Shown piece by piece: positions 1 through 33,814 of a stretch of DNA of 64,000 nucleotides. Numbering within the stretch: the first letter of the stretch is position 1; each line of letters starts with the position of its first letter. The translations under genes were made by a program, and so were the position numbers. This DNA is from Bombyx mori. Taxonomy: Eukaryota > Arthropoda > Insecta > Lepidoptera > Bombycidae. The stretch covers positions 7,750,753-7,814,752 of the forward strand of contig NC_085135.1 of NCBI RefSeq assembly GCF_030269925.1. Direction: 5' to 3'. The notes under the pieces are model-generated. The model was not told the origin of the DNA. It saw only the letters and a list, made by a program, of their open reading frames with translations, and ran no database searches.

Positions 1-663
1 AGTTGCAAATAGGTGAGATAAGATCGACCGTGCATTTCTATGATCAAGTTATTGAAAATCGATGCATATCGACTGGTTATCTCAAAAACGTGTGTATTAG
101 AAAAGTTCGGTGGCATCAGAAAGTGAGATCGAATTTAAGTGAGTCAGACTAGGAAACAGTTTTCCACAGCCAAAAACGAAACAACGTCGAAGCCGATAAT
201 AAACAAAATTGCGCATTAGAAAAAATGTGAAACTGTCTAAATTCTGATGATGGATAAAATTCCAAACATCAGTAAGCCTCGTAAATTCATGTTATTCATG
301 ATTGATGAATTAACGATAAGCGTACTTTCTTAGTTGTTCAGTCTTCAATCAAAAATATGAGAGACACATTTATGACTTGTAGACGTAGTCTAGAAGAATA
401 TTGGTTTGAAGTTCCCTAAATTGCACATCAAATTAGCAAACGCAACATTAAAGCTATTGCAAGAATTTGACTACACTGAATGACTTTATGAATTGACAAA
501 AAGAGGTAACAATGAAAGAAAATCAGCACAAAACGAAAATACGTTTTTTTTAATGCTTATTGTAAGAATGACAACGTATGTAAGTATCTACTACCCTGCA
601 CGCAGTAAAATAGTTTAATAACATGTTTATCAATTGATTTCCTTGTCTCTATGACCGCGAACT

Positions 664-669
664 AATAAA
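664..669 (+). promoter_or_regulatory. Poly(A) signal AATAAA inside satellite unit 1
   Basis: AATAAA in the context actaataaagtt, followed within about 40 nt by T/G-rich sequence. It recurs at the same place in every unit, so a plus-strand transcript could be cleaved once per repeat. Functional use is inferred. Confidence 0.4.
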
Positions 670-762
670 GTTTAGCAACAATACATCTTTGTATCAGCAT
701 AATTTGGTTTATACAATCGATCTAGTGATTTCGTGCGATCCGAGAATTATAAACGAAGTAGA

Positions 763-1524
763 AGTTGCAAATAGGTGAGATAAGATCGACCGTGTATTTC
801 TATGATCAAGTTATTGAAAATCGATGCATATCGACTGGTTATCTCAAAAACGTGTGTATTAGAAAAGTTCGGTGGCATCAGAAAGTGAGATCGAATTTAA
901 GTGAGTCAGACTAGGAAACAGTTTTCCACAGCCAAAAACGAAACAACGTCGAAGCCGATAATAAACAAAATTGCGCATTAGAAAAAATGTGAAACTGTCT
1001 AAATTCTGATGATGGATAAAATTCCAAACATCAGTAAGCCTCGTAAATTCATGTTATTCATGATTGATGAATTAACGATAAGCGTACTTTCTTAGTTGTT
1101 CAGTCTTCAATCAAAAATATGAGAGACACATTTATGACTTGTAGACGTAGTCTAGAAGAATATTGGTTTGAAGTTCCCTAAATTGCACATCAAATTAGCA
1201 AACGCAACATTAAAGCTATTGCAAGAATTTGACTACACTGAATGACTTTATGAATTGACAAAAAGAGGTAACAATGAAAGAAAATCAGCACAAAACGAAA
1301 ATACGTTTTTTTTAATGCTTATTGTAAGAATGACAACGTATGTAAGTATCTACTACCCTGCACGCAGTAAAATAGTTTAATAACATGTTTATCAATTGAT
1401 TTCCTTGTCTCTATGACCGCGAACTAATAAAGTTTAGCAACAATACATCTTTGTATCAGCATAATTTGGTTTATACAATCGATCTAGTGATTTCGTGCGA
1501 TCCGAGAATTATAAACGAAGTAGA
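763..1524. ncRNA. Candidate W-linked piRNA-precursor unit (Feminizer-like); one representative repeat
   Basis: In B. mori femaleness is set by Feminizer, a W-linked piRNA made from a tandemly repeated, non-coding precursor; the piRNA directs silencing of Masculinizer mRNA (established knowledge). What is seen here: a near-identical non-coding unit of about 0.76 kb, tandemly repeated, with an internal AATAAA followed by a T/G-rich stretch (around 1426-1470) that would suit a short polyadenylated transcript, in a window otherwise made of nested retrotransposons. I cannot compare it with the Fem sequence from memory, nor say which strand is transcribed. It could also be an unrelated satellite. 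The identity is an inference. Confidence 0.42.
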
Positions 1525-3048
1525 AGTTGCAAATAGGTGAGATAAGATCGACCGTGTATTTCTATGATCAAGTTATTGAAAATCGATGCATATCGACTGG
1601 TTATCTCAAAAACGTGTGTATTAGAAAAGTTCGGTGGCATCAGAAAGTGAGATCGAATTTAAGTGAGTCAGACTAGGAAACAGTTTTCCACAGCCAAAAA
1701 CGAAACAACGTCGAAGCCGATAATAAACAAAATTTCGCATTAGAAAAAATGTGAAACTGTCTAAATTCTGATGATGGATAAAATTCCAAACATCAGTAAG
1801 CCTCGTAAATTCATGTTATTCATGATTGATGAATTAACGATAAGCGTACTTTCTTAGTTGTTCAGTCTTCAATCAAAAATATGAGAGACACATTTATGAC
1901 TTGTAGACGTAGTCTAGAAGAATATTGGTTTGAAGTTCCCTAAATTGCACATCAAATTAGCAAACGCAACATTAAAGCTATTGCAAGAATTTGACTACAC
2001 TGAATGACTTTATGAATTGACAAAAAGAGGTAACAATGAAAGAAAATCAGCACAAAACGAAAATACGTTTTTTTTAATGCTTATTGTAAGAATGACAACG
2101 TATGTAAGTATCTACTACCCTGCACGCAGTAAAATAGTTTAATAACATGTTTATCAATTGATTTCCTTGTCTCTATGACCGCGAACTAATAAAGTTTAGC
2201 AACAATACATCTTTGTATCAGCATAATTTGGTTTATACAATCGATCTAGTGATTTCGTGCGATCCGAGAATTATAAACGAAGTAGAAGTTGCAAATAGGT
2301 GAGATAAGATCGACCGTGCATTTCTATGATCAAGTTATTGAAAATCGATGCATATCGACTGGTTATCTCAAAAACGTGTGTATTAGAAAAGTTCGGTGGC
2401 ATCAGAAAGTGAGATCGAATTTAAGTGAGTCAGACTAGGAAACAGTTTTCCACAGCCAAAAACGAAACAACGTCGAAGCCGATAATAAACAAAATTGCGC
2501 ATTAGAAAAAATGTGAAACTGTCTAAATTCTGATGATGGATAAAATTCCAAACATCAGTAAGCCTCGTAAATTCATGTTACCCATGATTGATGAATTAAC
2601 GATAAGCGTACTTTCTTAGTTGTTCAGTCTTCAATCAAAAATATGAGAGACACATTTATGACTTGTAGACGTAGTCTAGAAGAATATTGGTTTGAAGTTC
2701 CCTAAATTGCACATCAAATTAGGAAACGCAACATTAAAGCTATTGCAAGAATTTGACTACACTGAATGACTTTATGAATTGACAAAAAGAGGTAACAATG
2801 AAAGAAAATCAGCACAAAACGAAAATACGTTTTTTTTAATGCTTATTGTAAGAATGACAACGTATGTAAGTATCTACTACCCTGCACGCAGTAAAATAGT
2901 TTAATAACATGTTTATCAATTGATTTCCTTGTCTCTATGACCGCGAACTAATAAAGTTTAGCAACAATACATCTTTGTATCAGCATAATTTGGTTTATAC
3001 AATCGATCTAGTGATTTCGTGCGATCCGAGAATTATAAACGAAGTAGA

Positions 3049-3823
3049 AGTTGCAAATAGGTGAGATAAGATCGACCGTGCATTTCTATGATCAAGTTAT
3101 TGAAAATCGATGCATATCGACTGGTTATCTCAAAAACGTATGTATCAGGAAAGTTCTGTGGCATTTATCGCTTGGATCAGAAAGTGAGATCGAATTTAAG
3201 TGAGTCAGACTAGGAAACAGTTTTCCACAGCCAAAAACGAAACAACGTCGAAGCCGATAATAAACAAAATTGCGCATTAGAAAAAATGTGAAACTGTCTA
3301 AATTCTGATGATGGATAAAATTCCAAACATCAGTAAGCCTCGTAAATTCATGTTATTCGTGATTGATGAATTAACGATAAGCGTACTTTCTTAGTTGTTC
3401 AGTCTTCAATCAAAAATATGAGAGACACATTTATGACTTGTAGACGTAGTCTAGAAGAATATTGGTTTGAAGTTCCCTAAATTGCACATCAAATTAGCAA
3501 ACGCAACATTAAAGCTATTGCAAGAATTTGACTACACTGAATGACTTTATGAATTGACAAAAAGAGGTAACAATGAAAGAAAATCAGCACAAAACGAAAA
3601 TACGTTTTTTTTAATGCTTATTGTAAGAATGACAACGTATGTAAGTATCTACTACCCTGCACGCAGTAAAATAGTTTAATAACATGTTTACCAATTGATT
3701 TCCTTGTCTCTATGACCGCGAACTAATAAAGTTTAGCAACAATACATCTTTGTATCAGCATAATTTGGTTTATACAATCGATCTAGTGATTTCGTGCGAT
3801 CCGAGAATTATAAACGAAGTAGA
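3049..3823. repeat. Satellite unit 5, 13-bp-longer variant
   Basis: This unit is 775 bp. Around 3139-3180 it reads gtatgtatcaggaaagttc and then carries about 13 extra bases (catttatcgcttgg region) compared with the 762-bp units. The same allele recurs in unit 8, so it spread by unequal exchange or conversion. Confidence 0.9.
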
Positions 3824-5347
3824 AGTTGCAAATAGGTGAGATAAGATCGACCGTGCATTTCTATGATCAAGTTATTGAAAATCGATGCATATCGACTGGT
3901 TATCTCAAAAACGTGTGTATTAGAAAAGTTCGGTGGCATCAGAAAGTGAGATCGAATTTAAGTGAGTCAGACTAGGAAACAGTTTTCCACAGCCAAAAAC
4001 GAAACAACGTCGAAGCCGATAATAAACAAAAATGCGCATTACAAAAAATGTGAAACTGTCTAAATTCTAATGATGGATAAAATTCCAAACATCAGTAAGC
4101 CTCGTAAATTCATGTTACTCATGATTGATGAATTAACGATAAGCGTACTTTCTTAGTTGTTCAGTCTTCAATCAAAAATATGAGAGACACATTTATGACT
4201 TGTAGACGTAGTCTAGAAGAATATTGGTTTGAAGTTCCCTAAATTGCACATCAAATTAGGAAACGCAACATTAAAGCTATTGCAAGAATTTGACTACACT
4301 GAATGACTTTATGAATTGACAAAAAGAGGTAACAATGAAAGAAAATCAGCACAAAACGAAAATACGTTTTTTTTAATGCTTATTGTAAGAATGACAACGT
4401 ATGTAAGTATCTACTACCCTGCACGCAGTAAAATAGTTTAATAACATGTTTATCAATTGATTTCCTTGTCTCTATGACCGCGAACTAATAAAGTTTAGCA
4501 ACAATACATCTTTGTATCAGCATAATTTGGTTTATACAATCGATCTAGTGATTTCGTGCGATCCGAGAATTATAAACGAAGTAGAAGTTGCAAATAGGTG
4601 AGATAAGATCGACCGTGCATTTCTATGATCAAGTTATTGAAAATCGATGCATATCGACTGGTTATCTCAAAAACGTGTGTATTAGAAAAGTTCGGTGGCA
4701 TCAGAAAGTGAGATCGAATTTAAGTGAGTCAGACTAGGAAACAGTTTTCCACAGCCAAAAACGAAACAACGTCGAAGCCGATAATAAACAAAATTGCGTA
4801 TTAGAAAAAATGTGAAACTGTCTAAATTCTGATGATGGATAAAATTCCAAACATCAGTAAGCCTCGTAAATTCATGTTATTCGTGATTGATGAATTAACG
4901 ATAAGCGTACTTTCTTAGTTGTTCAGTCTTCAATCAAAAATATGAGAGACACATTTATGACTTGTAGACGTAGTCTAGAAGAATATTGGTTTGAAGTTCC
5001 CTAAATTGCACATCAAATTAGCAAACGCAACATTAAAGCTATTGCAAGAATTTGACTACACTGAATGACTTTATGAATTGACAAAAAGAGGTAACAATGA
5101 AAGAAAATCAGCACAAAACGAAAATACGTTTTTTTTAATGCTTATTGTAAGAATGACAACGTATGTAAGTATCTACTACCCTGCACGCAGTAAAATAGTT
5201 TAATAACATGTTTATCAATTGATTTCCTTGTCTCTATGACCGCGAACTAATAAAGTTTAGCAACAATACATCTTTGTATCAGCATAATTTGGTTTATACA
5301 ATCGATCTAGTGATTTCGTGCGATCCGAGAATTATAAACGAAGTAGA

Positions 5348-6122
5348 AGTTGCAAATAGGTGAGATAAGATCGACCGTGCATTTCTATGATCAAGTTATT
5401 GAAAATCGATGCATATCGACTGGTTATCTCAAAAACGTATGTATCAGGAAAGTTCTGTGGCATTTATCGCTTGGATCAGAAAGTGAGATCGAATTTAAGT
5501 GAGTCAGACTAGGAAACAGTTTTCCACAGCCAAAAACGAAACAACGTCGAAGCCGATAATAAACAAAATTGCGCATTAGAAAAAATGTGAAACTGTCTAA
5601 ATTCTGATGATGGATAAAATTCCAAACATCAGTAAGCCTCGTAAATTCATGTTATTCGTGATTGATGAATTAACGATAAGCGTACTTTCTTAGTTGTTCA
5701 GTCTTCAATCAAAAATATGAGAGACACATTTATGACTTGTAGACGTAGTCTAGAAGAATATTGGTTTGAAGTTCCCTAAATTGCACATCAAATTAGCAAA
5801 CGCAACATTAAAGCTATTGCAAGAATTTGACTACACTGAATGACTTTATGAATTGACAAAAAGAGGTAACAATGAAAGAAAATCAGCACAAAACGAAAAT
5901 ACGTTTTTTTTAATGCTTATTGTAAGAATGACAACGTATGTAAGTATCTACTACCCTGCACGCAGTAAAATAGTTTAATAACATGTTTATCAATTGATTT
6001 CCTTGTCTCTATGACCGCGAACTAATAAAGTTTAGCAACAATACATCTTTGTATCAGCATAATTTGGTTTATACAATCGATCTAGTGATTTCGTGCGATC
6101 CGAGAATTATAAACGAAGTAGA
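5348..6122. repeat. Satellite unit 8, 13-bp-longer variant
   Basis: Same 13-bp insertion and neighbouring substitutions (around 5439-5478) as unit 5, three units away. The two long units also share ttattcgtg where most units have ttattcatg. Confidence 0.9.
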
Positions 6123-6542
6123 AGTTGCAAATAGGTGAGATAAGATCGACCGTGCATTTCTATGATCAAGTTATTGAAAATCGATGCATATCGACTGGTT
6201 ATCTCAAAAACGTGTGTATTAGAAAAGTTCGGTGGCATCAGAAAGTGAGATCGAATTTAAGTGAGTCAGACTAGGAAACAGTTTTCCACAGCCAAAAACG
6301 AAACAACGTCGAAGCCGATAATAAACAAAATTGCGCATTAGAAAAAATGTGAAACTGTCTAAATTCTGATGATGGATAAAATTCCAAACTCAGTAAGCCT
6401 CGTAAATTCATGTTATTCATGATTGATGAATTAACGATAAGCGTACTTTCTTAGTTGTTCAGTCTTCAATCCAAAATATGAGAGACACATTCATGACTTG
6501 TAGACGTAGTCTAGAAGAATATTGGTTTGAAGTTCCCTAAAT

Positions 6543-6547
6543 TGCAC
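6543..6547. repeat. Target-site duplication tgcac of the BEL element (left copy)
   Basis: The partner is 13525-13529. Five bases is the usual BEL/Pao duplication length. Confidence 0.9.
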
Positions 6548-7099
6548 TGGGGTAGCAAGGGGGCCTGTAAATAGCCCTCCTGCGGCGGGAGCATATAAAG
6601 CGGGGTTGTAGAAAGGCGTGTAAATAGCCGTCCTAAGCGGTATGTGACAAATGTTTGTCACTTATAATTAGCGGAGCGGTAAAACTATATAGCGGTAAAC
6701 AAAAGCTAGTTATCAAACTAAAGATATAAATTAAATACACATAAGCGAGCGGGCGGGCGAATGATTACACGGAAGCAGCAATAAAATGGCAATACATTAA
6801 AAGAACTTGCACTCACCTGTAGACCTTGCCAGTGACTGTGGTGCGGGCTTCGGCGATGGAAGCACGCGGGCGGCGGGAGGGGGGCGAAGCTCACGTAGCT
6901 TTTCGTAAGCACAAGCACTACATGCACTACGGTACATGTGCCGCCATCTAGGCAGCTAGCGGTGAAGCGTTATCGATCGGGAGCTAACACCACGCTTTGG
7001 ATTAAATTACGCTCGCGGTAATTAGTAACTGACAAACTCCAAAGGTGGCGCCATCCCAATAATTCATTAGCATCCCATTACTAAATCCGCGCGTGACCA
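6548..7099 (-). repeat. BEL 3' LTR (552 bp)
   Basis: Matches 12973-13524 over its full length with about five substitutions. On the minus strand it begins TGGTCACGC and ends ACCCCA. It contains a 69-codon ORF (6718-6927, minus), also present in the other LTR, which I regard as chance. Confidence 0.95.
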
Positions 7100-7115
7100 T
7101 CCTGCCCGCCTTGAA
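7100..7115 (-). promoter_or_regulatory. Polypurine tract of the BEL element
   Basis: On the minus strand the bases just before the 3' LTR read aaggcgggcagga, directly abutting the LTR start TGGTCACG. This is the expected plus-strand priming site. Confidence 0.75.
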
Positions 7116-7278
7116 AGTTCGCAGGACTTTCAACAAATATATAAAGATACTAAGATAGGAAGCGTAAAGCTTAAATAGCGGGAAGTTATTTGAAAAGAAA
7201 CAAATTTTAATTAATAATAAGCCATCATGAATGTTTACGAGTAGAGTTGAAGCGGTTGATGACATGCGGTACTCTAAT

Positions 7279-10200
7279 TTATTCTAGCGGTAGCGGATAT
7301 AATTTTACAACTGGACGTTTAAGAAATCCAGATTTCGTTTTTACCAAAGCAACGCGTATAATGTTATCGACACCTGGATACACCTCTTGTATAACGCCAA
7401 GTGGCCAGCGGAGCGGTGGAATGTCATCTTGATGAATAAGAACTACTGTCCCAACCTTCACGTAGTTATCTGATGTACACCACTTCTGTCTGACTTGCAA
7501 CGTATGCAGGTACTCTAATCTCCATTTCCTCCAATAGGAATTAACCAAACCATCTAACAACGCTTTGCGATTAGTTAGACTCATCTGATTTGCGGACAAT
7601 TCAGACGCGGGTAAATACTGCAAAGGAGTGGACAACAAAAAATGTGCGGGTGTGAGAATTTCGGGGTTGGGATCTGCGGATAAAAGACATAAAGGTCTGG
7701 AATTCATAAGACATTCTATTTGATTCAACACAGTTAACATCTCTTCGTAAGTGAGAATTTGTGCGCCTATTACTCTATTTAAATGGGTTTTAACGGATTT
7801 AATGTTTGATTCCCATAAACCTCCAAAATGTGGAGCCCGAGGCGGGATCATCTTCCAAATGATTCGGTATTTAGTTAATTCATCATTCCATGCGGATATA
7901 AAATTATTTGAAACTAGAAGTTTGTACATTTCATCTAACTGAGCCTTTGCGCCAACAAAATTAGTGCCATTATCTGAATACATGAAAGAAACTGGACCTC
8001 GACGAGATATAAAACGTTTGAAAGCGGCAAGAAATGAGTCCGTTGACAAATCCGAGGCTAACTCAATATGTATAGCCTTTGTCGTTAAGCATACGAACAG
8101 GCAAATGTAAGCCTTTTGTGAATGATGACCACGTTTGCGTACAAGCGTTATCTTAAATGGGCCCGCGTAATCTACTCCCGTGTGACAGAAAGCTTTGGCC
8201 TCCATTACACGGCTTGACGGAAGGTCAGCCATCATGGGAGTTGGGTGTGAAGGTGATACTCGAAAACATGATTTACACATATGCACTCTTTTTCTTATAA
8301 CGTTTCTAGCGGACAATATCCAAAAGCGTTGACGAATAATGGACATCAAAAGGTCCGGACCAGTGTGCAAGTTTGTATTATGAAAATAATCAACAATAAT
8401 ATTTATTATGTGATCGTGTTTTGGCAATAAAGCGGGGTGTTGCGTTTCAAACGGTAAATCAGAGTTCGAAAGTCTACCCTGAATACGCAAAATTCCATCT
8501 TCGTCAATAAATGGACTAAGTTTACGAATATTTTTCGAAGGTAAATCTAATTTTCTAATGCTGGCAATATCATGACCAAAATATTTAGCTTGAAGAGCTC
8601 GAATAATAGCTTTCTCAGCAGTATTTAAATCGGATGCGGTTACAAACTTGTTTCGCGGTAATTTTCTTATAAATCGAAGTACATAAACAACACAGCGAAG
8701 AAGTTTTGACCATAACGAAATTCTCAACCCATGTTGATATATTGGGGAATCTTCGACAACAGTTAAAGCGGTAAGTGTTACAGATTTTTTCATTTCAGGT
8801 ATGTCACTTCCAGATTTACAAGGTACAAAAGGTTCAATAGGCCATTGTGAAATAGGATAGCAGGCCCAAGAAGGACCCTGCCACCAAAGCGAGTTATTAA
8901 TAATTTGTGACGGTAAAAGACCTCGTGACACACAATCGCTAGGATTTTCCTTACCATTAATATGAAAAAAGCGGTCAGGTGATAAATTCTCCTGAATTTG
9001 AGCGATGCGGTTTCCTACAAACATTGACCATCTATGCGGGGAAGATTTAATCCAAGAAAGAGCAATTGTAGAATCTGAGAAAGCGTATATAGCGGTGATA
9101 GGATGTAAAGAATTATAAGCGTTATAAATAAGTTTAACTAATTTTGACAAAACAAGAGCGGCACAAAGCTCAAGGCGAGCTAATGTAGTTATCTTAACCG
9201 GAGAAACCTTTGATTTTGAGCACAATAATCTTAAAGTAATATCTCCTGTGGGATCTGTAATGTGTAAATAAACAACGCAACCGTAAGCGTTCAAGCTTGC
9301 ATCACAAAATGCAACAATATTTACTTCACAGTCTTTGGAAACTCCAATATGGCGCGGTATTGCTATAGTTGAAAGTAATGGAAGCTCTTTCACAAGTGAA
9401 GAGTAGCGGTAAATAATTGTATCTGGAGGTGTATCATCCCAGTCTATTTTAGAATTCCAGAGTTCCTTAATAAGCAATTTAGCGAACAGTATAACTGGAG
9501 CAACAAAACCAAGCACGTCGAACAAGCGTGCGACTAAAGATAATATTGTTCTTTTAGTGCACTTTTCGTTAGTGTTTGAGCTCGTCATAAAAAATGAGTC
9601 ATTAGCGGGAAGCCATGCAAGGCCTAAAACTTTCATGGTATTATTAGCATCATCAGAGAAGCTTACAGAAGAGCGGTGCGTTTCTGGAAGGCTATTAAGA
9701 AAGGCAGTGGAGTTACTTGCCCATTTTGTTAAATTAAAACCTCCTGATTTAAAGAGTGAAATTAGTTGTTTCGATAGTTTGATAGCTGAAATATCTTCGT
9801 GTAGGGATGTGACGAGATCATCCATATATAATTGAGACTCAGCTACACTAGCGGCTTCTGGATAACGATAACATTCTTCTGATGCTAATTGACGTATAGT
9901 ACGCATTGCTAAATAAGGTGATGATTTTAAACCAAAGGGCAGACAGTTAAAAGCGAAAATGCGAAGTTTATCATTTTTAAAGTGGTACAATATTTTTAAA
10001 TATTTATGGTGGTCTGTGGTCACCCTAATGCGTAAGTACATTTGTTCCACATCAGCGCACAATGCCACAGGGAACAAACGAAAGCGGAGTAAAAGCAAAA
10101 ATAAGTCTGCCTGTAAATTTGGACCAGTATGCAAGACGTCATTAAGTGACAGTCCACTAGATGTTTTAGCACTAGCATCAAGAACTACACGTAGTTTAGT

Positions 10201-10680
10201 GGTAGTCTTGCTTGGGCGGATAACTGCATGGTGCGGTATATAATAACCGTTATCGGTTTCCTTAGCGGTGTCGTTAATTTCAGTTAAATAACCTTTACTA
10301 ATGTAATCCTGTATAACGATATCGTAATCTTCGCGGAGTGAGGGTAATTGAACAAACTTACGTTCGAGCGAAAGAAAACGGCGGTGAGCAACAGTATAAG
10401 ACTTGCCAAGGTCAGCGGGATTTCTACTAAATGGTAACTCAACCGTATATCGGCCATCATTATCGCGGGTAATTGTAGAAATATATTTGTTTTCACACTC
10501 GGCTTCCTCAGGGCTAAGATGACGCTCATGAAGAATCTCCTCTAATTCCCAAAATTTATGTAAAAATGACTCAAGGTCTTTATGCGTTATAGATGAGAAA
10601 GTTTTATTTAAAGTGAATGTAGAATGAATTTTAGTATTTTCGAAAGCGGGTGGATTATCACTATAAACTGTACTAGATAG
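7279..10680 (-). CDS. pol: BEL/Pao pol: reverse transcriptase, RNase H, integrase
   Basis: Open for 1133 codons directly after the TGA at 10681-10683 and in the same frame as gag-pro; there is no ATG near its beginning, so it would be made as part of a gag-pol product. In order: Pao-type RT (KLRVVLDAS, ADVEQMYLRI, catalytic box YMDDLV), RNase H-like region (FCDASLNAYG, FSDSTIALSW), integrase zinc region (H, H, then CKSCFRV), DDE core (GVDYAGPF, YSDNGTNF, GGLWESNIKS) and the C-terminal domain seen in BEL integrases (DUF5641-like). It makes element cDNA in particles and inserts it into the genome. No stop or frameshift was seen, so this part looks intact; only the gag TAG and the junction TGA would limit expression. 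Confidence 0.92.
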   Translation of the reverse strand, partial: LSSTVYSDNPPAFENTKIHSTFTLNKTFSSITHKDLESFLHKFWELEEILHERHLSPEEAECENKYISTITRDNDGRYTVELPFSRNPADLGKSYTVAHRRFLSLERKFVQLPSLREDYDIVIQDYISKGYLTEINDTAKETDNGYYIPHHAVIRPSKTTTKLRVVLDASAKTSSGLSLNDVLHTGPNLQADLFLLLLRFRLFPVALCADVEQMYLRIRVTTDHHKYLKILYHFKNDKLRIFAFNCLPFGLKSSPYLAMRTIRQLASEECYRYPEAASVAESQLYMDDLVTSLHEDISAIKLSKQLISLFKSGGFNLTKWASNSTAFLNSLPETHRSSVSFSDDANNTMKVLGLAWLPANDSFFMTSSNTNEKCTKRTILSLVARLFDVLGFVAPVILFAKLLIKELWNSKIDWDDTPPDTIIYRYSSLVKELPLLSTIAIPRHIGVSKDCEVNIVAFCDASLNAYGCVVYLHITDPTGDITLRLLCSKSKVSPVKITTLARLELCAALVLSKLVKLIYNAYNSLHPITAIYAFSDSTIALSWIKSSPHRWSMFVGNRIAQIQENLSPDRFFHINGKENPSDCVSRGLLPSQIINNSLWWQGPSWACYPISQWPIEPFVPCKSGSDIPEMKKSVTLTALTVVEDSPIYQHGLRISLWSKLLRCVVYVLRFIRKLPRNKFVTASDLNTAEKAIIRALQAKYFGHDIASIRKLDLPSKNIRKLSPFIDEDGILRIQGRLSNSDLPFETQHPALLPKHDHIINIIVDYFHNTNLHTGPDLLMSIIRQRFWILSARNVIRKRVHMCKSCFRVSPSHPTPMMADLPSSRVMEAKAFCHTGVDYAGPFKITLVRKRGHHSQKAYICLFVCLTTKAIHIELASDLSTDSFLAAFKRFISRRGPVSFMYSDNGTNFVGAKAQLDEMYKLLVSNNFISAWNDELTKYRIIWKMIPPRAPHFGGLWESNIKSVKTHLNRVIGAQILTYEEMLTVLNQIECLMNSRPLCLLSADPNPEILTPAHFLLSTPLQYLPASELSANQMSLTNRKALLDGLVNSYWRKWRLEYLHTLQVRQKWCTSDNYVKVGTVVLIHQDDIPPLRWPLGVIQEVYPGVDNIIRVALVKTKSGFLKRPVVKLYPLPLE

Positions 10681-12744
10681 TCACAAAGAGGTATTATTAT
10701 CATTTATAACAGAAAAATTATCATGTTGCGGTTTCATAATGCCGGTGTAACTCACTTCAGGTACGTCACCCATAAGAACATAACCGAAGGTTGTTTCTAC
10801 GGCAGGTGGCGCTAGTGAGCCAGTATCTATACGATTACCTAAGTATATATATGGAAATAACTGAGCACCTAACACCATATCAATCACACCTGGAACGTTC
10901 CAATTTGAATCGGCAAGCGGTAAATTACGTATATGATTCATATTTGAGGAATTTATAAAATAAGCGGGTAATTTATCTGTAATAGAGTCTACTACTAATG
11001 CGTGAATATAATATTTAATAGGAGAAAATCTAGATTCAATATTTAAATAAACATATCCGTGAATCGGGCGAGCGGTTAATCCAATACCTCTAATATAAGA
11101 ATTATTTAAAGGTATAATCGGTAATTTAAGTAATTTACAACAATTGACAGTTATTAAATTATTTTGGGAACCATTATCTATTAAAGATCTAACTATTTTA
11201 CGTTCCCCTTTATTCGAGTGAGCGTATATTTGAGCGGTTGATAATAAAATATTACTATTCGATTTTATTTCCGAACTGTGAGTCAACGTGGTAGCGGTCG
11301 TATTATTTTGTTGTTGTATCGTTTTCTTAGAGTGTAAACAAGTATTCGAAGCGGCATCATGATGATCGTAACTCTGAACAACAGGTTGAGATTGAACCTG
11401 GGACCGACCGTAATCGGACCGCGCGGCATCACTCGGAATTCCATGTACCTGCGACCGACTGACCTGCCTGTCCATGTCAGCGTAGTCATTCGATGGACTG
11501 GGTACGCTTTTCCTATTTCGATTCGCCCGTTTATTACCAAAACACAATAAAGTATGATGATATTTCTTACAATTATTGCATGTTAACTTTGATTGACATG
11601 CTTTTAATGTATGCGATAAGCTTAAACAATTTATGCAACCCTTGTTCGATTTAATAAAATCATAACGTGCTTGCGGTGAAATCATATTTTTAAATTCATT
11701 ACAACGATATAACTGCGTGTGGTGCGAGCTCGAGCAAAGATCGCACGTAGATAAGGATCTACCTGTGCACGAAACCGGTTTGTTAACCCTTTCAGTGCGG
11801 ACTGGGTCATTATAACTATTAGAAATAAAAGATTTATGATTTTTAGATTTCTCTATGTTACATTTCGGTGCAGAGCGTTCTAATATTTTAATCTGATCCT
11901 GTATGAATTTAATAAACATTTCAGTTGTGGGTATTTTAATACCACGAACCGATGCTTCAAAAGAATGTAACGTTTGAGGATCCAACCTTCTCAGTGAGCA
12001 TTGTAATAAAATAAAATCAGTTAAATCGAGTAAATTTAATTGTTTTAAAGCGGCAATCGAAGATGAAATTTTTTCAATATACTACATATTTAAACTATTT
12101 GCGGTAGGTGAACAATTTTTTAAATCTAATATATTATTCAGATAATGACATCCTAAAGCTCGTTTATCCTGATATTTACTAATTAGATTCGACCAAATAA
12201 TATTATATGTTTCACCTGTGGGTATTATACCAGCGGTTAACTTTAATGCACTATGTGTTAATTTGTCCATTAAATACTGCACACGTTGCGCATCACACAG
12301 TTGCGGGTTATCGTGAATGTTAGCTTTAAAAGCCTGGTAAAATGTTTCCCATCCTTCAAGAGAGCGTCCGTCAAAGGAAGGAAGTGAAATTGTTGGCAAT
12401 GTTACATTTATGGCGGCGGTAGTTCTCATTACATTTGACGAATTACCAATTTTAATTTTGTTACGAGCGCGTCTTACGTAATTATATAACGTGTCAAAAG
12501 ACGATAAAGCTGCGTATTCAGGCTCAACTTCGGGGTTTTGCTTTAAATTTAAATCATTGATATCATCCAAATTGCTTTCAAATCTAACACGCATGTCATC
12601 AATCGATTCTGATTCGGCAAGAAAAGTTTCAATTAATTCCGAATCAAACTCCGAAATATTTTTTGATTTATTATATAAATCATTAATTTGTGCAAATGCT
12701 AAATTATTCTTCGCGATAAGTTTCTTTAGTTGTCTATTTTCCAT
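10681..12744 (-). pseudogene. gag-pro: BEL gag-protease, one internal TAG, ends in TGA
   Basis: Structural and protease part of the BEL polyprotein. The start is taken as the ATG at 12744 (MENRQLKKL). The N-terminal half carries the BEL gag domain (DUF1759-like; LPSFDGRSLEGW). An in-frame TAG at 12082-12084 interrupts it, and the same frame continues as YIEKISSSIAALKQL, so the stop is probably a nonsense mutation. Further on are Cys/His knuckles (CDLCSSSHHTQLYRC; CINCLSLSH; CNNCKKYHH) and a retropepsin-like motif, LIDNGSQNN, typical of the Pao-type protease (DUF1758). The frame ends at TGA 10681-10683 and pol follows in the same frame. The start could also be a few codons upstream. Confidence 0.85.
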
Positions 12745-12949
12745 AATGAAGTTTTGAAATAACTGACTAAAAAATAACACTAAATGAACTAAGTTAATAA
12801 ATATAATTCAATATGCGGTTACGAGTTATTATTACTAATAGCGATGAATGTAATTAACTTTCACATACAATACAATGCTGTAACAAAATGGCGAATGGGG
12901 GTAATCATAAATTAATTCTAATTTTAATTAAAATTTAAGCTGGATCTAA

Positions 12950-12967
12950 TCCAGGCTCGCAGGACCA
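12950..12967 (-). promoter_or_regulatory. tRNA primer-binding site of the BEL element
   Basis: A few bases inside the 5' LTR the minus strand reads TGGTCCTGCGAGCCTGG, starting with the TGG that pairs with a tRNA CCA end. The tRNA is not identified with confidence; tRNA-Tyr looked closest from memory, with mismatches. Confidence 0.65.
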
Positions 12968-12972
12968 AACTT

Positions 12973-13524
12973 TGGGGTAGCAAGGGGGCGTGTAAATAGC
13001 CCTCCTGCGGCGGGAGCATATAAAGCGGGGTTGTAGAAAGGCGTGTGAATAGCCGTCCTAAGCGGTATGTGACAAATGTTTGTCACTTATAATTAGCGGA
13101 GCGGTAAAACTATATAGCGGTAAACAAAAGCTAGTAATCAAACTAAAGATATAAATTAAATACACATAAGCGAGCGGGCGGGCGAATGATTACACGGAAG
13201 CAGCAATAAAATGGCAATACATTAAAAGAACTTGCACTCACCTGTAGACCTTGCCAGTGACTGTGGTGCGGGCTTCGGCGATGGAAGCACGCGGGCGGCG
13301 GGAGGGGGGCGAAGCTCACGTAGCTTTTCGTAAGCACAAGCACTACATGCACTACGGTACATGTGCCGCCATCTAGGCAGCTAGCGGTGAAGCGTTATCG
13401 ATCGGGAACTAACACCACGCTTTGGATTAAATTACGCTCGCCGTAATTAGTAACTGACAAACTCCAAAGGTGGCGCCATCCCAATAATTCATTAGCATCC
13501 CATTACTAAATCCGCGCGTGACCA
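12973..13524 (-). repeat. BEL 5' LTR (552 bp)
   Basis: Direct copy of 6548-7099. It lies upstream of gag on the minus strand, so it is the promoter-bearing 5' LTR. It is followed, on its low-coordinate side, by the primer-binding site. Confidence 0.95.
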
Positions 13525-14454
13525 TGCACATCAAATTAGCAAACGCAACATTAAAGCTATTGCAAGAATTTGACTACACTGAATGACTTTATGAATTGAC
13601 AAAAAGAGGTAACAATGAAAGAAAATCAGCACAAAACGAAAACACGTTTTTTTTAATGCTTATTGTAAGAATGAAAACGTATGTAAGTATCTACTACCCT
13701 GCACGCAGTAAAATAATTTAATAACATGTTTATCAATTGATTTCCTTGTCTCTATGACCGCGAACTAATAAAGTTTAGCAACAGTGCATATTTGTATCAG
13801 CATCATTTGGTTTATACAATCGACCTAGTGATTTCGTGCGATCCGAGAATTATAAACGAAGTAGAAGTTGCAAATAGGTGAGATAAGATCGACCGTGCAT
13901 TTCTATGATCAAGTTATTGAAAATCGATGCATATCGACTGGTTATCTCAAAAACGTGTGTATTAGAAAAGTTCGGTGGCATCAGAAAGTGAGATCGAATT
14001 TAAGTGAGTCAGACTAGGAAACAGTTTTCCACAGCCAAAAACGAAACAACGTCGAAGCCGATAATAAACAAAATTGCGCATTAGAAAAAATGTGAAACTG
14101 TCTAAATTCTGATGATGGATAAAATTCCAAACATCAGTAAGCCTCGTAAATTCATGTTACTCATGATTGATGAATTAACGATAAGCGTACTTTCTTAGTT
14201 GTTCAGTCTTCAATCAAAAATATGAGAGACACATTTATGACTTGTAGACGTAGTCTAGAAGAATATTGGTTTGAAGTTCCCTAAATTGCACATCAAATAA
14301 GCAAACGCAACATTCAAGTTATCGCAAGAATTCGACTACACTGAATTACTTTATGAATTGACAAAAAGAGGTAACAATGAAAGAAAATCAGCACAAAACG
14401 AAAATACGTTTTTTTTAATGCTTATTGTAAGAATGACAACGTATGTAAGTATCT
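13525..14454. repeat. 762-bp satellite, middle block (rest of unit 9, part of unit 10)
   Basis: After the target duplication the array resumes with gcacatcaaattagcaaac and runs through a unit start at 13866, then stops at gtaagtatct (14454). Unit 9 (6123-6547 plus 13530-13865) totals 761 bp, one base short because of a deletion near 6390. Several substitutions near 13640-13800 and 14300-14345 mark these as slightly older copies. Confidence 0.93.
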
Positions 14455-14508
14455 TATTATATTATATATCATATCATATATTATATATATATCATATTAT
14501 ATATTTTA
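14455..14508. repeat. TA-rich low-complexity stretch
   Basis: About 54 bases of tatatatcatat-type sequence joining the satellite to the Jockey-like fragment. No gene. Confidence 0.85.
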
Positions 14509-14524
14509 ACGGGACCTGTCCCTC

Positions 14525-15575
14525 TTGTGGCTGCGCGTAGACCATGGGGGTTGTACCCGAGTCTACGCGTGCCTGTACAGGTCCCAGAGCAGTGATGCAG
14601 GTTCAGCTCTGATAGAGCATGTGCAAGAGGGAACTAACCGCGTGCTTGAGCAGTACTCATCTGCGGAGGTGGTGGTTCTTGGAGACTTTAACGCTCACCA
14701 CCAATTGTGGCTGGGGTCCAGAACCACTGACCTCCCGGGTCGGGCTGCCTACGATTTCGCCTTGGCCTACGGCCTCTCCCAGCTGGTGACACAGCCCACC
14801 CGTGTCCCAGATATTGAGGGGCACGAGCCTTCTCTGTTGGACCTTCTGCTGACTACCGATCCAGCCGGATACAGTGTGGTGGTCGACGCTCCGCTTGGAT
14901 CGTCTGATCACTGCCTTATCCGTGCTGCCACACCACTTTCTCGTCCTAGTCGTGGAACGACGACCAGGTATCGAAGAGTTTGGCAGTATTTGTCAGCAGA
15001 TTGGGATGGATTGCGTGAATTTTACGCATCCTACCCATGGGAGCGGTTCTGCTTTTCCTCTGCTGATCCTGACGTCTGTGCGGACCGTCTTAAAGACGTG
15101 GTGCTCCAGGGGATGGAATTGTTTATTCCCTCCTCTGAAGTGCCCGTTGGGGGTCGCAGCAGACCCTGGTATAACAATGCCAGCAGGGATGCTGCACACC
15201 TCAAGCGGTCCGCATACGTGGCATGGGATAATGCCAGGAGACGTCAGGACCCTAACATCTCAGAGGAAAGGCGGAAATATAACGCCGCTTCCAGGTCCTA
15301 CAAGAAGGTTATTGCCAAGGCGAAGTCGGAGCACGTTGCTAGAGTTGGCGAGCGACTAAAGAGCTATCCCTCTGGGAGCCGTGCTTTTTGGTCGCTCGCC
15401 AAAGCCGCAGAAGGAAACTTTTGCAGGTCTAGTCTCCCACCACTGCGAAAGTCCGATGACAGTCTGGCCCATAGTGCGAAAGAGAAGGCTGACCTTCTGG
15501 TCAAACTCTTCGCCTCGAACTCGACCGTGGACGACGGGGGTGCCACACCACCGAACATCTCCCGGTGTGATAGTT

Positions 15576-15579
<4 letters not shown>
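14525..15579 (+). pseudogene. Jockey-like ORF2, endonuclease part (fragment)
   Basis: Reads as the C-terminal part of an AP-like endonuclease, which nicks target DNA for target-primed reverse transcription: VVVLGDFNAHH near residue 50 (catalytic Asn/Asp region), LDLLLTTD, then GSSDHCLIRA with the final His. Next comes the linker before the RT (PWYNNASRDAAHLKRS, YKKVIAKAKSEH). The N-terminal endonuclease and all of ORF1 are missing. At 15579 the frame is cut by the R1-A insertion, and it resumes at 22604. The poly-F end of the naive ORF is just the R1 poly(T) tract. Confidence 0.85.
15564..15579. repeat. Target-site duplication of R1-A (left copy)
   Basis: ggtgtgatagttccct, repeated at 22588-22603. 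It interrupts the Jockey-like frame. Sixteen bases as counted, possibly shorter by one or two because of ambiguity at the poly(T) side. Confidence 0.9.
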
Positions 15580-15621
<42 letters not shown>

Positions 15622-16135
15622 CGGGTAGAGGGCCGAACCTCCTACGAGGTCCCCGCGCAAAAGGGGCGCGCGGGGTATGTGAGACTCAACGATCTGCATG
15701 GTGTTGTGAGCAGACCGCGGGCCCAAGGATTTTAGAGCCCACCCACTAAACGACTCCCCTGCACTCTTACACCCGACGTCCGATCCCCTCCGAGGTCAGA
15801 ACCCGGATGAGGTAGGGGGGCTACCGCGGTCAACACTACAACCAGACAGCGCGGCTCACCCCAAGGACGCCCAGCCGACGGAGCCTTCGAGGCGAATCGA
15901 AGGCTCTGAAACGTCGGCCGTCTCGGTACGGCAGCCCGTCGGGCCGCCCAGACGGTGCCGCTGGTGTCCCGGAATACCCCGCTGGACCAGAACCAGCCTG
16001 CCGGGTCGGGACGCGATACACCGTCGACCGGTCGCTCTATTCACTCCACGGCAGCGCGCTAGAGTGCTGGTAGCGCGCCGCGCGGCCTCACCCCCTCAGG
16101 TCGCCCCTTGACCTTCACCGGGGGGAGGCCGCCAC
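15579..16135 (-). other. R1-A 3' UTR and poly(A) tail
   Basis: About 510 bp between the ORF2 stop and the A tail, then about 43 As (Ts on the plus strand). Highly similar copies of this 3' UTR lie at 36332-36845, 53091-53604 and 53910-54423. A second, diverged version is at 39433-39850 and 44518-45092. The 3' UTR is what the reverse transcriptase normally recognises in R1/R2-type elements. Confidence 0.9.
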
Positions 16136-19100
16136 CTACAGGGGCCGGGACGTACGGGCGTATTCCCGCCTCCGGCCCCCGGCTCGACGGCGACGGATCG
16201 GTGCGGAAAGGGAAGAGCTCTCCCTCTCTCGCTCCGCCGCCTCCTTCTGCGAGATGGTGGACTCGCAGAAGTCGAGCATCGCCTTCCAGGACGCGTCGCT
16301 GCCGAGCATCGTAGCCACGACGCGCGGCAGCGAGAGGTCCTCTCCTATGACCGCGACGAGGGCGGCGCGTTGCTCGTCGAATCCAGAGCAACGCGCCAGC
16401 GTGTGTTCCGCTGTGTCTTCCTCGTCGCGGTCCGCGCAGTGGTGGCACTGCGCCGTCGGTTCCCTTCCGGCTATCTTGTGCAAGTACCGGCCGAAACAAC
16501 CATGGCCGGTAAGCATCTGCGTTAGCCGGAAGGTGAGGCATCCGCGGTCGCGGCCCACCCAGTCCGCGAGAACCGGGCGGACCGCCTCGACGGTTCGGAG
16601 GCCGGCCGACGGGTCCGCCAAGCGGCGAGACCACGCCTCCAGCACGGACCGCCGAGAGTGGAGCCTCCGCGCTCGAACTACACCTTCGCCGGGGCGCCCT
16701 TCCCCCCTAGAGCGGAGGTCGCTACGCCACCTGTAATCGGCAGCGAGCGCCTCCGCCTCCAGGTCCCAGGGTGGCGCCCCGGCGAGCAAGCACGCCGCCT
16801 CGAAGGAGACGGTGCGGTATCCTCGGATCGCCCTGACCGCGATCGCACGCTGCGGACGTCGCAGAGCCGCGACGTTCTTGCGGGTCAGGGCGCGGCACCA
16901 TACGGGAGCCCCGTATAGTGCCATCGACCGCACCACCCCCATGTAGAGGCGGCGCGCCACCTGATCGGGACCCCCGACGTTTGGAAGCAGCCGGCTCAGA
17001 GAGCCGGCCGTCGCCATCAGTCGAGGGCCCAACTTCTCAAAGTGAGCGCGGAAGTTCCACCGACTATCCAGTTCGAGGCCGAGGTACCGAAGACCGGTCA
17101 CCCCAACCCCGACGCGGACGCCTCCGATCACGAGGTGGGCACCCACAGGCGGCGCTCGTCCCGGCCCGTGAAAAAGCAGGGCCTGGGTTTTATCGAGCGC
17201 CACCTCGAGCCCCAACCGTCGGATCCTAGTGACGACGTGTGCCACGCCTGCGCACGCCAGACGGGCAGACTCCCGGTAGTCCCTCCCCGGAGCCACGACC
17301 AACGTGTCGTCGGCGTAACATATTACGCTCAGCCCGGGGAGGGGACCCCGAATGACGCCCCGCAGGACCCAGTCGTAGCCGATGTTCCACAGCAGGGGGC
17401 CCAGGACAGACCCCTGCGGAACACCGCGCTCGACGGGGAAGCGGTACATCGTCCCACCGTGTCCGATGCACTGGATCGACCTGCCCTCGAGGTAGGAGCC
17501 GATCAGTCGGCGGAGGTATGCGGGGACGCCGTGATACTCCAGCGCCCCCGCGATCACCGACCAGGGCAGGGTGTTGAAGGCGTTCCTTACATCTAAGGAT
17601 AGCGCCATCGCCACCCCGCCCCGGGATACGGCTTCGTCGGAGAGGGCCCGCACGCGCAGAATTGCGTCGATAGTCGAGCGGCCCTCTCTGAAGCCGTATT
17701 GCTCCGCCGAAAGATCGGGACCCGTCTCGGTCAGGTGCCGGACGATGCGGGCGGCGACGATTCTCTCGAGCATCTTGCCCGCTTCGTCCAGCAACACGAT
17801 GGGGCGATAGCCCGCGGGTGAGTCCGCGGGGCGCCCGTCCTTCCGCAGAAGGACCAGTCTGCCCGTCTTCCATTTCGACGGGAACCGTCCCGACTCGAGG
17901 CACGCTTCGAAAAGCCCCCCGAGCCGGTCCCCTAGGGCCTCGAAGGCCAAGCTCCAGACCCGGCCGTGAACGCCGTCAGGGCCGGGGGCCGTGTCCTTCG
18001 CTCTCATTTTGGACACGGCCGCATGGATCTCCGCCCCCGTGATAGGGGGAGGGGGCTCCTCGGCAGCGGGAACGCTGGGGCGACGTGGAGGTGTGCCCCA
18101 CGTGGCGTCCATCTGGGGGGGCTCAAAGTCCCCCCCCGCTGCCGGCGGGAAAAGCGCGGAAACTATCTCCCGCAGCTGCCGAGGCTGGAGCCGCTCGGTC
18201 ACCGGGAGCGCCCACGGCTGCAGTTTCCTGCGAACCATCTTGTATGGGCGCCCCCAGGGATCTTCGTCGAGCGACTCCAGGAGAGTCTTCATGCTCTGCT
18301 TCTTGGCCTCGCCGATGGCCAGCTGCAGCGCCGTCTGCTTTTGACGACAGTCAGCGTGCAGCTGGGCCGCCGTCTCCGCGAACGCAGCGTCGCGACGACG
18401 GCGGCGGCGGTGGCGTGCGCTCCGGCGGCGCGCCCTCACGCACTCCTCACGGAGTCTCGCGATCTCGGGCGACCACCAGAACGCACCCCCACGTGGTGCT
18501 CGGGGGCCGACCCGGGGCATGGCGGCATCACAAATGTTTGCCATGGTGCCCCGGAACCAGTCGACCTCCGCATCCACGTCCGCGAGCCGCGCGGGTTTTG
18601 GCGCCCACGCAGCAACAGCGGCCGCCTCCATCAGCAACTCCTTGTTCATCCGTTTCAAGGCCCACCTGGGGAACGAACGGGGCGCACCTTGCGGGAGCTC
18701 CTCCTCGCCGCGGGCGCCCGCGGCTGACGACGACGACAAGGAGGAGGCGGAGAGCTCGAATCGGACGTATCTGTGGTCCGAGAGCGTCTCCGCCCCCTCG
18801 AGTACGCGCCAGCCGCGGGTTCGGCATGCGACGGACGGGGACGCGAACGTCACGTCCACATGAGACTGCCCGTTCCACCGCACGCAAGTCGCAACCGAAC
18901 CTCTGTTTATGAGAAAGAGGCTGGTCGCGATCGCCCACTCCGAAAGGGCCTCGCCTCGCGCATCCGTGCGGGGGGAACCCCAAGCCGTGCACTTGGCATT
19001 GAAGTCCCCCGCGACGATGACAGGGCGGGACCCGAGGCGGTGTAAAAGCGCCTCGAGCCCGCCCAGAAACCGTTCGAATTCGGCGAGGCTCCTGTTCGGA

Positions 19101-19384
19101 GAAAAGTACGCCCCGATCACGACGGTCCCGTCGATCCTAGCCGCAACGTACCCGGGTCCCCTGGCCACCATATCCAAGGGGGGTAACGCCGCGGACTGTC
19201 GTAATATAATGGCCACGGAGCCGTCGACGTCCCCGATCCAGCAGTCCTGGTCAGTGGGGACGAAATACGGCTCCGCGGCGACAGCAACATCGATTGACCA
19301 CTCCGCCATGGTGTGGACGAGGAGATCCTGTGCCCTGGCGGAGTGGTTCAAATTACATTGGAGGAAGCGATGGACGCAACCCAT
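16136..19384 (-). CDS. R1-A ORF2: endonuclease-reverse transcriptase, 1082 aa
   Basis: Intact. N-terminal AP-like endonuclease (about residues 1-225): FLQCNLNHSA, AAEPYFVP, VAGDFNAKCTAWGS and LSDHRYVRFE with the terminal catalytic His. A basic linker rich in Arg follows (RRRSARHRRRRRR). The reverse transcriptase is at about 430-720: KDTAPGPDGVHG, YRPIVLLDEAGK, YGFREGRSTIDAI, LDVRNAFNTLPW, GVPQGSVLGPLLW and CYADDTLVV. Near residue 985 is a CCHC-like zinc finger, CHHC...HTLARC, as in other R1-clade ORF2 proteins. It nicks DNA and copies the element RNA at the nick. The ATG at 19384 overlaps the ORF1 stop. The GC-rich frames on the opposite strand are shadows. Confidence 0.95.
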   Translation of the reverse strand: MGCVHRFLQCNLNHSARAQDLLVHTMAEWSIDVAVAAEPYFVPTDQDCWIGDVDGSVAIILRQSAALPPLDMVARGPGYVAARIDGTVVIGAYFSPNRSLAEFERFLGGLEALLHRLGSRPVIVAGDFNAKCTAWGSPRTDARGEALSEWAIATSLFLINRGSVATCVRWNGQSHVDVTFASPSVACRTRGWRVLEGAETLSDHRYVRFELSASSLSSSSAAGARGEEELPQGAPRSFPRWALKRMNKELLMEAAAVAAWAPKPARLADVDAEVDWFRGTMANICDAAMPRVGPRAPRGGAFWWSPEIARLREECVRARRRSARHRRRRRRDAAFAETAAQLHADCRQKQTALQLAIGEAKKQSMKTLLESLDEDPWGRPYKMVRRKLQPWALPVTERLQPRQLREIVSALFPPAAGGDFEPPQMDATWGTPPRRPSVPAAEEPPPPITGAEIHAAVSKMRAKDTAPGPDGVHGRVWSLAFEALGDRLGGLFEACLESGRFPSKWKTGRLVLLRKDGRPADSPAGYRPIVLLDEAGKMLERIVAARIVRHLTETGPDLSAEQYGFREGRSTIDAILRVRALSDEAVSRGGVAMALSLDVRNAFNTLPWSVIAGALEYHGVPAYLRRLIGSYLEGRSIQCIGHGGTMYRFPVERGVPQGSVLGPLLWNIGYDWVLRGVIRGPLPGLSVICYADDTLVVAPGRDYRESARLACAGVAHVVTRIRRLGLEVALDKTQALLFHGPGRAPPVGAHLVIGGVRVGVGVTGLRYLGLELDSRWNFRAHFEKLGPRLMATAGSLSRLLPNVGGPDQVARRLYMGVVRSMALYGAPVWCRALTRKNVAALRRPQRAIAVRAIRGYRTVSFEAACLLAGAPPWDLEAEALAADYRWRSDLRSRGEGRPGEGVVRARRLHSRRSVLEAWSRRLADPSAGLRTVEAVRPVLADWVGRDRGCLTFRLTQMLTGHGCFGRYLHKIAGREPTAQCHHCADRDEEDTAEHTLARCSGFDEQRAALVAVIGEDLSLPRVVATMLGSDASWKAMLDFCESTISQKEAAERERESSSLSAPIRRRRAGGRRREYARTSRPL

Positions 19385-21744: not shown

Positions 21745-22587
21745 TGTTTCATTTTTCCTTTTTTATTAACCAGGGGTCGGTCCCCTGGGGTCTGGTTGGT
21801 ACCCTTGGGACTGGACTCCCTCCAGCCATTCATCCCATCGCCGGGCACCAGAGCTTAGGATTGGGGCATTTTTTAAAGAGGTTTACGTCCTCGCGGCCCC
21901 GTGCCTCGCGGCAGCGGCCCCCGTCCCCCACGCGGTGAGGATTACGGGTTGGCCGGCGGCCCGCCGAGTGCAACGAGCAACACGACAGACCACCGCCCGA
22001 CGCTCAAAAGAGCAACAACGACGAAGCCACGCCGGTATACCGGTACCCCCCTCTGGAGGGCGTGCCCCTGTAGCCGAAGCCGGGGACATGGCGACCAGCG
22101 GCCGGAAGATGCGTAAGCAACGCCGGCTCACTTCTCCATCGAAAGGCAGGCCAAAAGTGGCCCACCATCACCCATGGGTTACGTCCGAAACGGGTCGGAC
22201 GTAACCCGAAGAAAAACAAAAAAAAAAGGGAAGAAGGGGGAAAAGAGAGGGAGCCCGAGCGTCTCCAGGAGGAACACCCTTCAGCGAGTGAAGGGCGTGG
22301 AGAGCCCGCAACTCCCCCTGCTGGTTTTGGTCCGCGTCATCCGATCTCTTTCGTTGCAAAGCCTAACTAGGCTACCCTACACCTACACCTAACCTACCTC
22401 CCTAACACCTAAGAATCCTTGCAACGAAAAAGATCGGACGATACCCCTGGGAGTGGGACTGTTCCCAGAGGATCCCGTTATCCGCCACCTACGGACGCGC
22501 CCGGTGGAAGTCCAGCAAAACTCCCCCACAGACGGAGCCCCCGGCCACGCAGAGTGCGCGCCGGGGGGCCCGCCCAGGTCCCTCGGG
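21745..22587 (-). promoter_or_regulatory. R1-A 5' UTR (putative internal promoter)
   Basis: About 840 bp upstream of ORF1, GC-rich except for a short stretch with degenerate TTAGG-like words (around 22370-22410). The outermost ~197 bp (22390-22587) corresponds to the monomer found twice in R1-E. Non-LTR elements carry internal promoters here; promoter activity is inferred. Confidence 0.6.
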
Positions 22588-33656: not shown

Positions 33657-33657
33657 G

Positions 33658-33675
33658 TGGTGACCCTCGACAGCA
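33658..33675 (+). promoter_or_regulatory. Gypsy-A primer-binding site
   Basis: TGGTGACCCTCGACAGCA, one base after the LTR end. The same start TGGTGACCC is used by gypsy-B and, in decayed form, by the small LTR element at 58049. Confidence 0.75.
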
Positions 33676-33814
33676 AGAAGAACCGAAGATAAGTGGATCA
33701 TATGTAAAATTAATTATCGTATACATTATCGTTTTCGGCTATAACATGTTTGTTCAACAAGGTAGAAGCAAAATATTTTTAACCGGTGGTCCAAGTCATA
33801 CGTAGTGAGCGTGT

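What the first reader, a model, noticed from the sequence alone, without database searches (positions are those of the whole stretch)
1..6547. Non-coding 762-bp tandem array may be the Feminizer piRNA locus of the W chromosome
Seen: nine near-identical, ORF-free units with an internal AATAAA, embedded in nested retrotransposons of a Bombyx genome. Known: the B. mori female determiner Feminizer is a single piRNA from a W-linked, tandemly repeated non-coding precursor of the same size class as I recall (Kiuchi and colleagues, Nature 2014). Inferred: this array is that locus or a relative of it. If so, the window shows the genomic organisation of a primary sex determiner.
Basis: partly seen in the sequence, partly recalled or inferred. 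Interest (0 to 1): 0.9.

Follow-up and report, generated by a model that had tools for sequence, protein, structure and literature searches.

The report
Silkworm female-determining Fem repeat array
This repeat array is very likely the silkworm's known female-determining gene Fem: its complete non-coding units carry a stretch that reads as the reverse complement of part of the male gene Masc, from which a predicted small RNA would switch Masc off, and the Masc-like stretch is longer than that predicted small RNA alone.

Summary
The window lies on an 11.2-Mb contig (C29, likely the W) of a 462-Mb genome whose contig C1 carries B. mori Masc. Outside C29 the 762/775-bp unit matches one place found: 55 bp (46 identical) in Masc exon 9, at the published Fem piRNA-binding site. 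A published Masc primer and exact published lengths (187 and 164 nt) pin that exon. The unit's + strand is Masc-sense, so Fem must be read from the MINUS strand; the AATAAA noted is on the other strand. Inferred Fem piRNA: unit 479-507, minus strand, 26 Watson-Crick pairs, 2 G:U, 1 mismatch, 1U/10A geometry. Ten sites lie in the window, 149 in the genome at up to 3 mismatches (one probably Masc itself). The array continues to 23,852, split by retrotransposon insertions, and starts before the window. Fem is already known. Possibly new: sites in both orientations (21 against 128), block duplication of clusters, and Masc likeness that spans both ping-pong footprints, ungapped and in Masc's reading frame. 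That hints at capture of a Masc fragment, or selection on both piRNAs. No RNA or read-depth data were available.

The parts
1..6547 (-). Fem array: eight complete units (762/775 bp) and 424 bp of a ninth; inferred transcript on the minus strand
   Evidence: Masc-sense on + strand
13526..14454 (-). rest of the ninth unit and 588 bp of a tenth, after the BEL/Pao insertion
23434..23852 (-). unit fragment: 235 bp of one unit's end and 184 bp of the next, after the EN/RT fragment
479..533 (+). 55-bp Masc exon-9-like segment of the first unit (Masc-sense, 46/55)
480..508 (-). inferred 29-nt Fem piRNA, unit 1
1242..1270 (-). inferred Fem piRNA, unit 2
2004..2032 (-). inferred Fem piRNA, unit 3
2766..2794 (-). 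inferred Fem piRNA, unit 4
3541..3569 (-). inferred Fem piRNA, unit 5
4303..4331 (-). inferred Fem piRNA, unit 6
5065..5093 (-). inferred Fem piRNA, unit 7
5840..5868 (-). inferred Fem piRNA, unit 8
13583..13611 (-). inferred Fem piRNA, unit 9 (split by the BEL/Pao element)
14345..14373 (-). inferred Fem piRNA, unit 10, one mismatch
6548..13525 (-). BEL/Pao retrotransposon inside the ninth unit; LTRs 6548-7100 and 12973-13525 (99.1% identical), target duplication GCAC
14455..23433 (+). 1,955-bp non-LTR EN/RT fragment between units, itself split by a GC-rich LINE at about 15580-22587; the unsplit state is seen in three other clusters

Best explanation
The array is very likely the silkworm Feminizer (Fem) locus: its complete units carry, on the minus strand, a 29-base stretch complementary to the published Fem target site in exon 9 of Masculinizer (Masc), and would be transcribed from that strand into the precursor of the Fem piRNA, which is predicted to guide cutting of Masc mRNA and so likely makes embryos female. 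Shown by sequence: the units, their copies, the Masc exon, the complementarity and the ping-pong geometry. Inferred: the exact piRNA ends (from a published 7-nt distance and the 1U/10A rule), minus-strand transcription, and that C29 is the W. Taken from published work, not tested here: Siwi/BmAgo3 ping-pong amplification and the feminizing effect. In the ping-pong step a Masc-derived piRNA starting at the cleavage site would pair back to the Fem precursor; the unit is Masc-like there too (24 Watson-Crick pairs and 1 G:U of 29).
For: The only match found outside C29 is Masc exon 9, E 3.3e-7. Masc identity: primer found once in the genome; 187-nt and 164-nt lengths exact; B. mori Masc-S protein maps there exon by exon. 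Published binding sequence present. Pairing: 26 Watson-Crick, 2 G:U, 1 mismatch, first 14 paired, U at position 1. 149 sites at up to 3 mismatches, control 0; the 100 listed are all on C29. Unit length near the 767-nt Fem transcript (review PMC13087858).
Against: Sites occur in both orientations, 21 against 128, whereas the review says all 129 published copies share one orientation. The piRNA stretch is not significantly more conserved than the rest of the unit (2 variable sites against 5.5 expected, 12% of windows as low). The review's transposon make-up of Fem (BovB, satellite, gypsy LTR) was not seen within the unit. About 18 of the 149 sites were not located. No expression or sex-linkage data.
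Confidence: 0.95

Rival explanations
1. The window's cluster is Fem by descent but silent; other clusters (for example the one near 3.6 Mb with 62 sites) make the piRNA.
For: This cluster is broken by retrotransposons and holds 17 of the 130 located sites.
Against: Its sites are intact: 9 of 10 in the window are exact, and adjacent complete units are nearly identical.
Confidence: 0.25
2. An ordinary W satellite that resembles Masc by chance and makes no functional piRNA.
For: It is a high-copy tandem repeat in retrotransposon-rich DNA.
Against: The match falls on the published Fem target site with the right strand and ping-pong geometry; best chance matches reached 33/55 and 22/30, observed 46/55 and 27/30.
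Confidence: 0.02
3. On origin: Fem is a chance junction of transposon pieces (proposal of Lee et al. 2024 as told by PMC13087858), with Masc likeness later sharpened by selection on both ping-pong partners.
For: Review section 8. A 27/30 match on an 11-Mb W is within reach of chance by my rough extrapolation. The likeness is nearly coextensive with the two piRNA footprints. A non-LTR EN/RT fragment lies inside the cluster.
Confidence: 0.5
4. On origin: Fem's active segment is a captured fragment of Masc exon 9, inserted antisense and amplified.
For: 46/55 ungapped and in Masc's frame; 19 of 25 beyond the inferred piRNA, where 2 of 69,752 25-mers of the Masc locus reach 19 (one is the site itself) and 0 of 80,050 of the window's TE part exceed 17. 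The Trilocha Masc protein has a related stretch there, so it belongs to Masc.
Against: No other Masc piece on C29 at E up to 10 (that query ends at the piRNA site). Likeness ends sharply at the footprints. Fem follows the B. mori sequence, not the Trilocha one, in the core, which fits co-evolution as well as recent capture.
Confidence: 0.35

Closest known systems
Bombyx mori Feminizer (Fem; Kiuchi et al. 2014, W organisation Lee et al. 2024; both known here only through the review PMC13087858)
   Same: Target site in Masc exon 9, tandem multi-copy clusters, unit close to the 767-nt transcript, antisense to Masc
   Different: Both orientations here (21 against 128); 149 sites at up to 3 mismatches against 129 reported copies; deposited sequence not compared
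Pxyfem of Plutella xylostella (PMC9674220, passages)
   Same: W-linked tandem copies in transposon-rich DNA, antisense to Masc, predicted piRNA source
   Different: Pxyfem is partial Masc cDNA; here only 55 bp are Masc-like
Fet-W of Lymantria dispar (through PMC13087858)
   Same: About 100 tandem copies on the W with a stretch complementary to Masc
   Different: No sequence homology to Fem according to the review; its match is 21 nt and perfect
Mom of pyralid moths (named in PMC13411575, passage)
   Same: W-derived piRNA against Masc
   Different: Sequence not seen; convergent according to the cited title

Membership tests
B. mori Feminizer (Fem) | 29-nt sequence complementary to Masc at the known exon-9 site | tested here: met
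B. mori Feminizer (Fem) | Ping-pong geometry: U at position 1, A at position 10 of the Masc partner, 10-nt identity | tested here: met
   on the inferred ends; ends not read from small RNAs
B. mori Feminizer (Fem) | Many tandem copies in several clusters on one chromosome | tested here: met
   the 100 listed of 149 and the 130 located are on C29
B. mori Feminizer (Fem) | W linkage, absent from males | tested here: inconclusive
   C29 (11,221,128 bp) is separate from Masc's contig C1; no male DNA or read depth
B. mori Feminizer (Fem) | About 767-nt female-specific transcript | not testable with these tools
   unit length 762/775 fits; no RNA data
B. mori Feminizer (Fem) | Sequence identity to the deposited Fem precursor | not tested
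   deposited sequence not available; papers not held
B. mori Feminizer (Fem) | All copies in one orientation (Lee 2024 through the review; a property of that assembly, not of the gene's definition) | tested here: not met
   21 against 128
B. mori Feminizer (Fem) | Transposon make-up: BovB-type LINE, satellite, gypsy LTR | tested here: inconclusive
   EN/RT LINE fragment between units (clade not determined); no transposon match inside the unit, with skipped common words
Masc retrocopy feminizer (Pxyfem type) | Recognisable Masc cDNA over a larger part or several exons | tested here: not met
   only 55 bp inside exon 9; no other Masc-S protein match on C29 at E up to 10

The most novel reading that the evidence does not exclude
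Silkworm Fem did not arise from a lucky 29-nt junction of transposons: its active segment is a captured scrap of Masc exon 9, 55 bp in Masc's reading frame, spanning the two piRNAs of one ping-pong pair, then amplified with its retrotransposon neighbours by segmental duplication and inversion. Feminizers of Bombyx and Plutella would then share one route: antisense copies of the male gene on the W.
Probability: 0.35. Interest if true: 0.7.

Novelty: already known. Interest (0 to 1): 0.45.

Why it matters
Fem is a piRNA that decides sex, and how such a switch is born is open. Here its units, its target gene and the insertion history around it are held in one assembly, so the origin question can be tested on sequence. 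If the Masc-like stretch is a captured Masc fragment, feminizers in distant moths would have arisen by a repeatable route rather than by unrelated accidents.

Tried and rejected
Text search for unit pieces that I half remembered as the Fem piRNA or picked from the unit (0 papers); a second search with the inferred piRNA and target found one paper, with the published Masc target. Papers not held: PMC6021594, PMC11186504, Lee 2024 by DOI, PMC12487030. Selection test on 109 full units: suggestive, not significant (47 partial pieces left out). Pfam on four translated pieces of the unit: nothing above a curated cut-off; one sub-threshold match, TraL, E 0.087. PDB search of the GC-rich LINE frame: 12 sequences, among them LINE-1, TRAS1, R2 and R1. 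Rejected: plus-strand transcription ending at AATAAA, because the plus strand is Masc-sense. My Masc gene model lacks some exons (1,483 of 1,767 nt).

On whether a Masc-fragment origin is in print: searches (listings with starts of abstracts) and passages of nine papers: PMC13087858 (passages and section 8), PMC6723575, PMC7926724, PMC5007099, PMC8302750, PMC9674220, PMC7660909, PMC13411575, and PMC11594454 (two reference-list passages only). I saw no such claim there; Kiuchi 2014 and Lee 2024 were not seen, so it may exist.
Full report
What is there. Window 1-6547 is a head-to-tail array: eight complete units (six of 762 bp, two of 775 bp) and the first 424 bp of a ninth. It does not end at 6547. 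A BEL/Pao element (6548-13525; LTRs 553 bp, 99.1% identical; target duplication GCAC) sits inside the ninth unit, whose remainder follows at 13526-13866, then 588 bp of a tenth to 14454; a further fragment lies at 23434-23852. Seven more sites lie within 5 kb upstream of the window.

Where it lies. The window is C29:7750753-7814752 of a 461,668,930-bp assembly in 30 contigs. C29 has 11,221,128 bases. Searched genome-wide, the unit gave 78 matches: 77 on C29 and one at C1:13809535-13809589, 55 bp ungapped, 46 identical, E 3.3e-7. The 775-bp unit gave the same picture with the limit at E = 1. In both, 23 of 27 first-look candidates were scored, and very common words are skipped (even most of this array was not listed for that reason), so a high-copy transposon relative is not excluded.

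That other place is Masc. A published Masc 3' primer (PMC5007099, passages) occurs once in the genome, at C1:13817598-13817617. Published Masc-S lacks CDS 1417-1603, 187 nt (PMC6723575, passages); from GTAACA in this exon to its donor is 187 nt. The last exon from an AG acceptor to the stop is exactly 164 nt, as CDS 1767 requires. The database's B. mori Masc-S protein maps to C1 in eight matches. [quoted passage not shown] the unit differs at its last base.

Strand and piRNA. The unit's + strand is Masc-sense, so an RNA that pairs with Masc must come from the minus strand. A published legend puts the cleavage site 7 nt from the Masc-S boundary. This places the piRNA 5' end at unit position 507 and gives 5'-UACCUCUUUUUGUCAAUUCAUAAAGUCAU: U at position 1, A at position 10 of the Masc partner, 26 Watson-Crick pairs, 2 G:U, 1 mismatch (position 15), first 14 all paired. 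The ends are inferred, not read from small RNAs. AATAAA is on the + strand only.

Copies. The 29-mer occurs at 149 places at up to 3 mismatches, control 0; the 100 listed are exact and on C29. The Masc site differs at 3 bases and so is probably one of the 149. A 27-mer next to it also gives 149, control 0, the 100 listed on C29. In the C29 stretches I fetched (20 stretches, 10 blocks; the window's cluster extended with window sequence) there are 130 sites, 126 exact, two with 1 and two with 2 mismatches: 24 near 2.0 Mb, 62 near 3.6, 8 near 7.5, 17 in the window's cluster, 5 and 4 near 9.1, 6 near 9.5, 2 near 10.09, 2 near 10.65, none near 10.05 Mb. About 18 were not located. In the window 9 of 10 sites are exact. 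Orientation is mixed, 21 against 128, unlike the single orientation reported for the published W (review PMC13087858 section 8); I cannot exclude assembly inversions.

History. Clusters near 2.0, 7.5 and 9.5 Mb hold the same 1,955-bp EN/RT fragment at the same unit junctions, 99.0-99.9% identical to the window's and without the 7-kb GC-rich LINE that splits it here. This is the empty site: the simplest reading is that clusters were copied as blocks, retrotransposons included, before that LINE landed in the window's copy. The 9.5-Mb cluster also has a copy of the BEL LTR (98.9%) where its unit sequence resumes.

Origin. The Masc likeness exceeds the inferred piRNA. Beyond its 5' end 19 of 25 bases match; of 69,752 25-mers of the Masc locus 2 reach 19 (one is the site itself), and of 80,050 of the window's TE part none exceeds 17. 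Best chance matches in about 1.46e8 position pairs were 33/55 and 22/30, against 46/55 and 27/30 (six predicted Masc exons, not the complete CDS, against about 49 kb of the window without units). By my hand extrapolation to the whole C29, a 27/30 match is expected at order 0.1-1 and 46/55 at order 1e-4 to 1e-3; this is rough. The likeness is ungapped and in Masc's frame. Against simple descent: it begins 1 nt beyond the piRNA's 3' end and stops 6 nt past the footprint of a 29-nt Masc piRNA, so selection on both ping-pong partners explains its extent as well; and the Masc-S protein finds no other piece on C29. I leave capture (0.35) below chimera plus selection (0.5).

Conservation. In 109 full units 144 of 762 positions vary; 2 of the 29 piRNA positions do (5.5 expected; 12% of equal windows are as low by count, 6% by diversity), and 5 of the 55 (10.4 expected; 7% and 4%). 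This is suggestive, not significant; related copies are not independent, and 47 partial pieces were left out.

Verdict. The locus is very likely Fem, already known.

Noticed in passing
15580-22587 and 46586-53625: Two GC-rich non-LTR retrotransposons on opposite strands, about 92% alike over 7 kb, with EN and RT domains in the first; the first has a roughly 15-bp target duplication.
   Followed up: partly
33312-39053: LTR element with 345-bp LTRs 99.4% identical, RNase H and integrase domains and a DUF7041 frame; a GC-rich LINE piece lies inside it at about 35895-36868.
   Followed up: partly
46388-46783: Two 198-bp tandem copies (96% alike) at the 5' side of the + strand GC-rich LINE; they may be promoter repeats.
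   Followed up: no
52828-54456: Tandem duplication of about 810 bp (97.7% identical) at the 3' side of the same LINE.
   Followed up: no
58532-58711: Three copies of a 59-bp tandem repeat, flanked by a 169-bp direct repeat at 58049-58215 and 58785-58953.
   Followed up: no
14395-14454 and 23434-23494: About 60 bp of the unit stands on both sides of the EN/RT fragment, longer than a usual LINE target duplication; the same junctions recur in three other clusters.
   Followed up: partly
Trilocha varians Masc protein (P0002): The core of the Fem target, QKEVT in B. mori Masc, is not conserved in Trilocha Masc, in line with the published lack of a Fem site there.
   Followed up: partly
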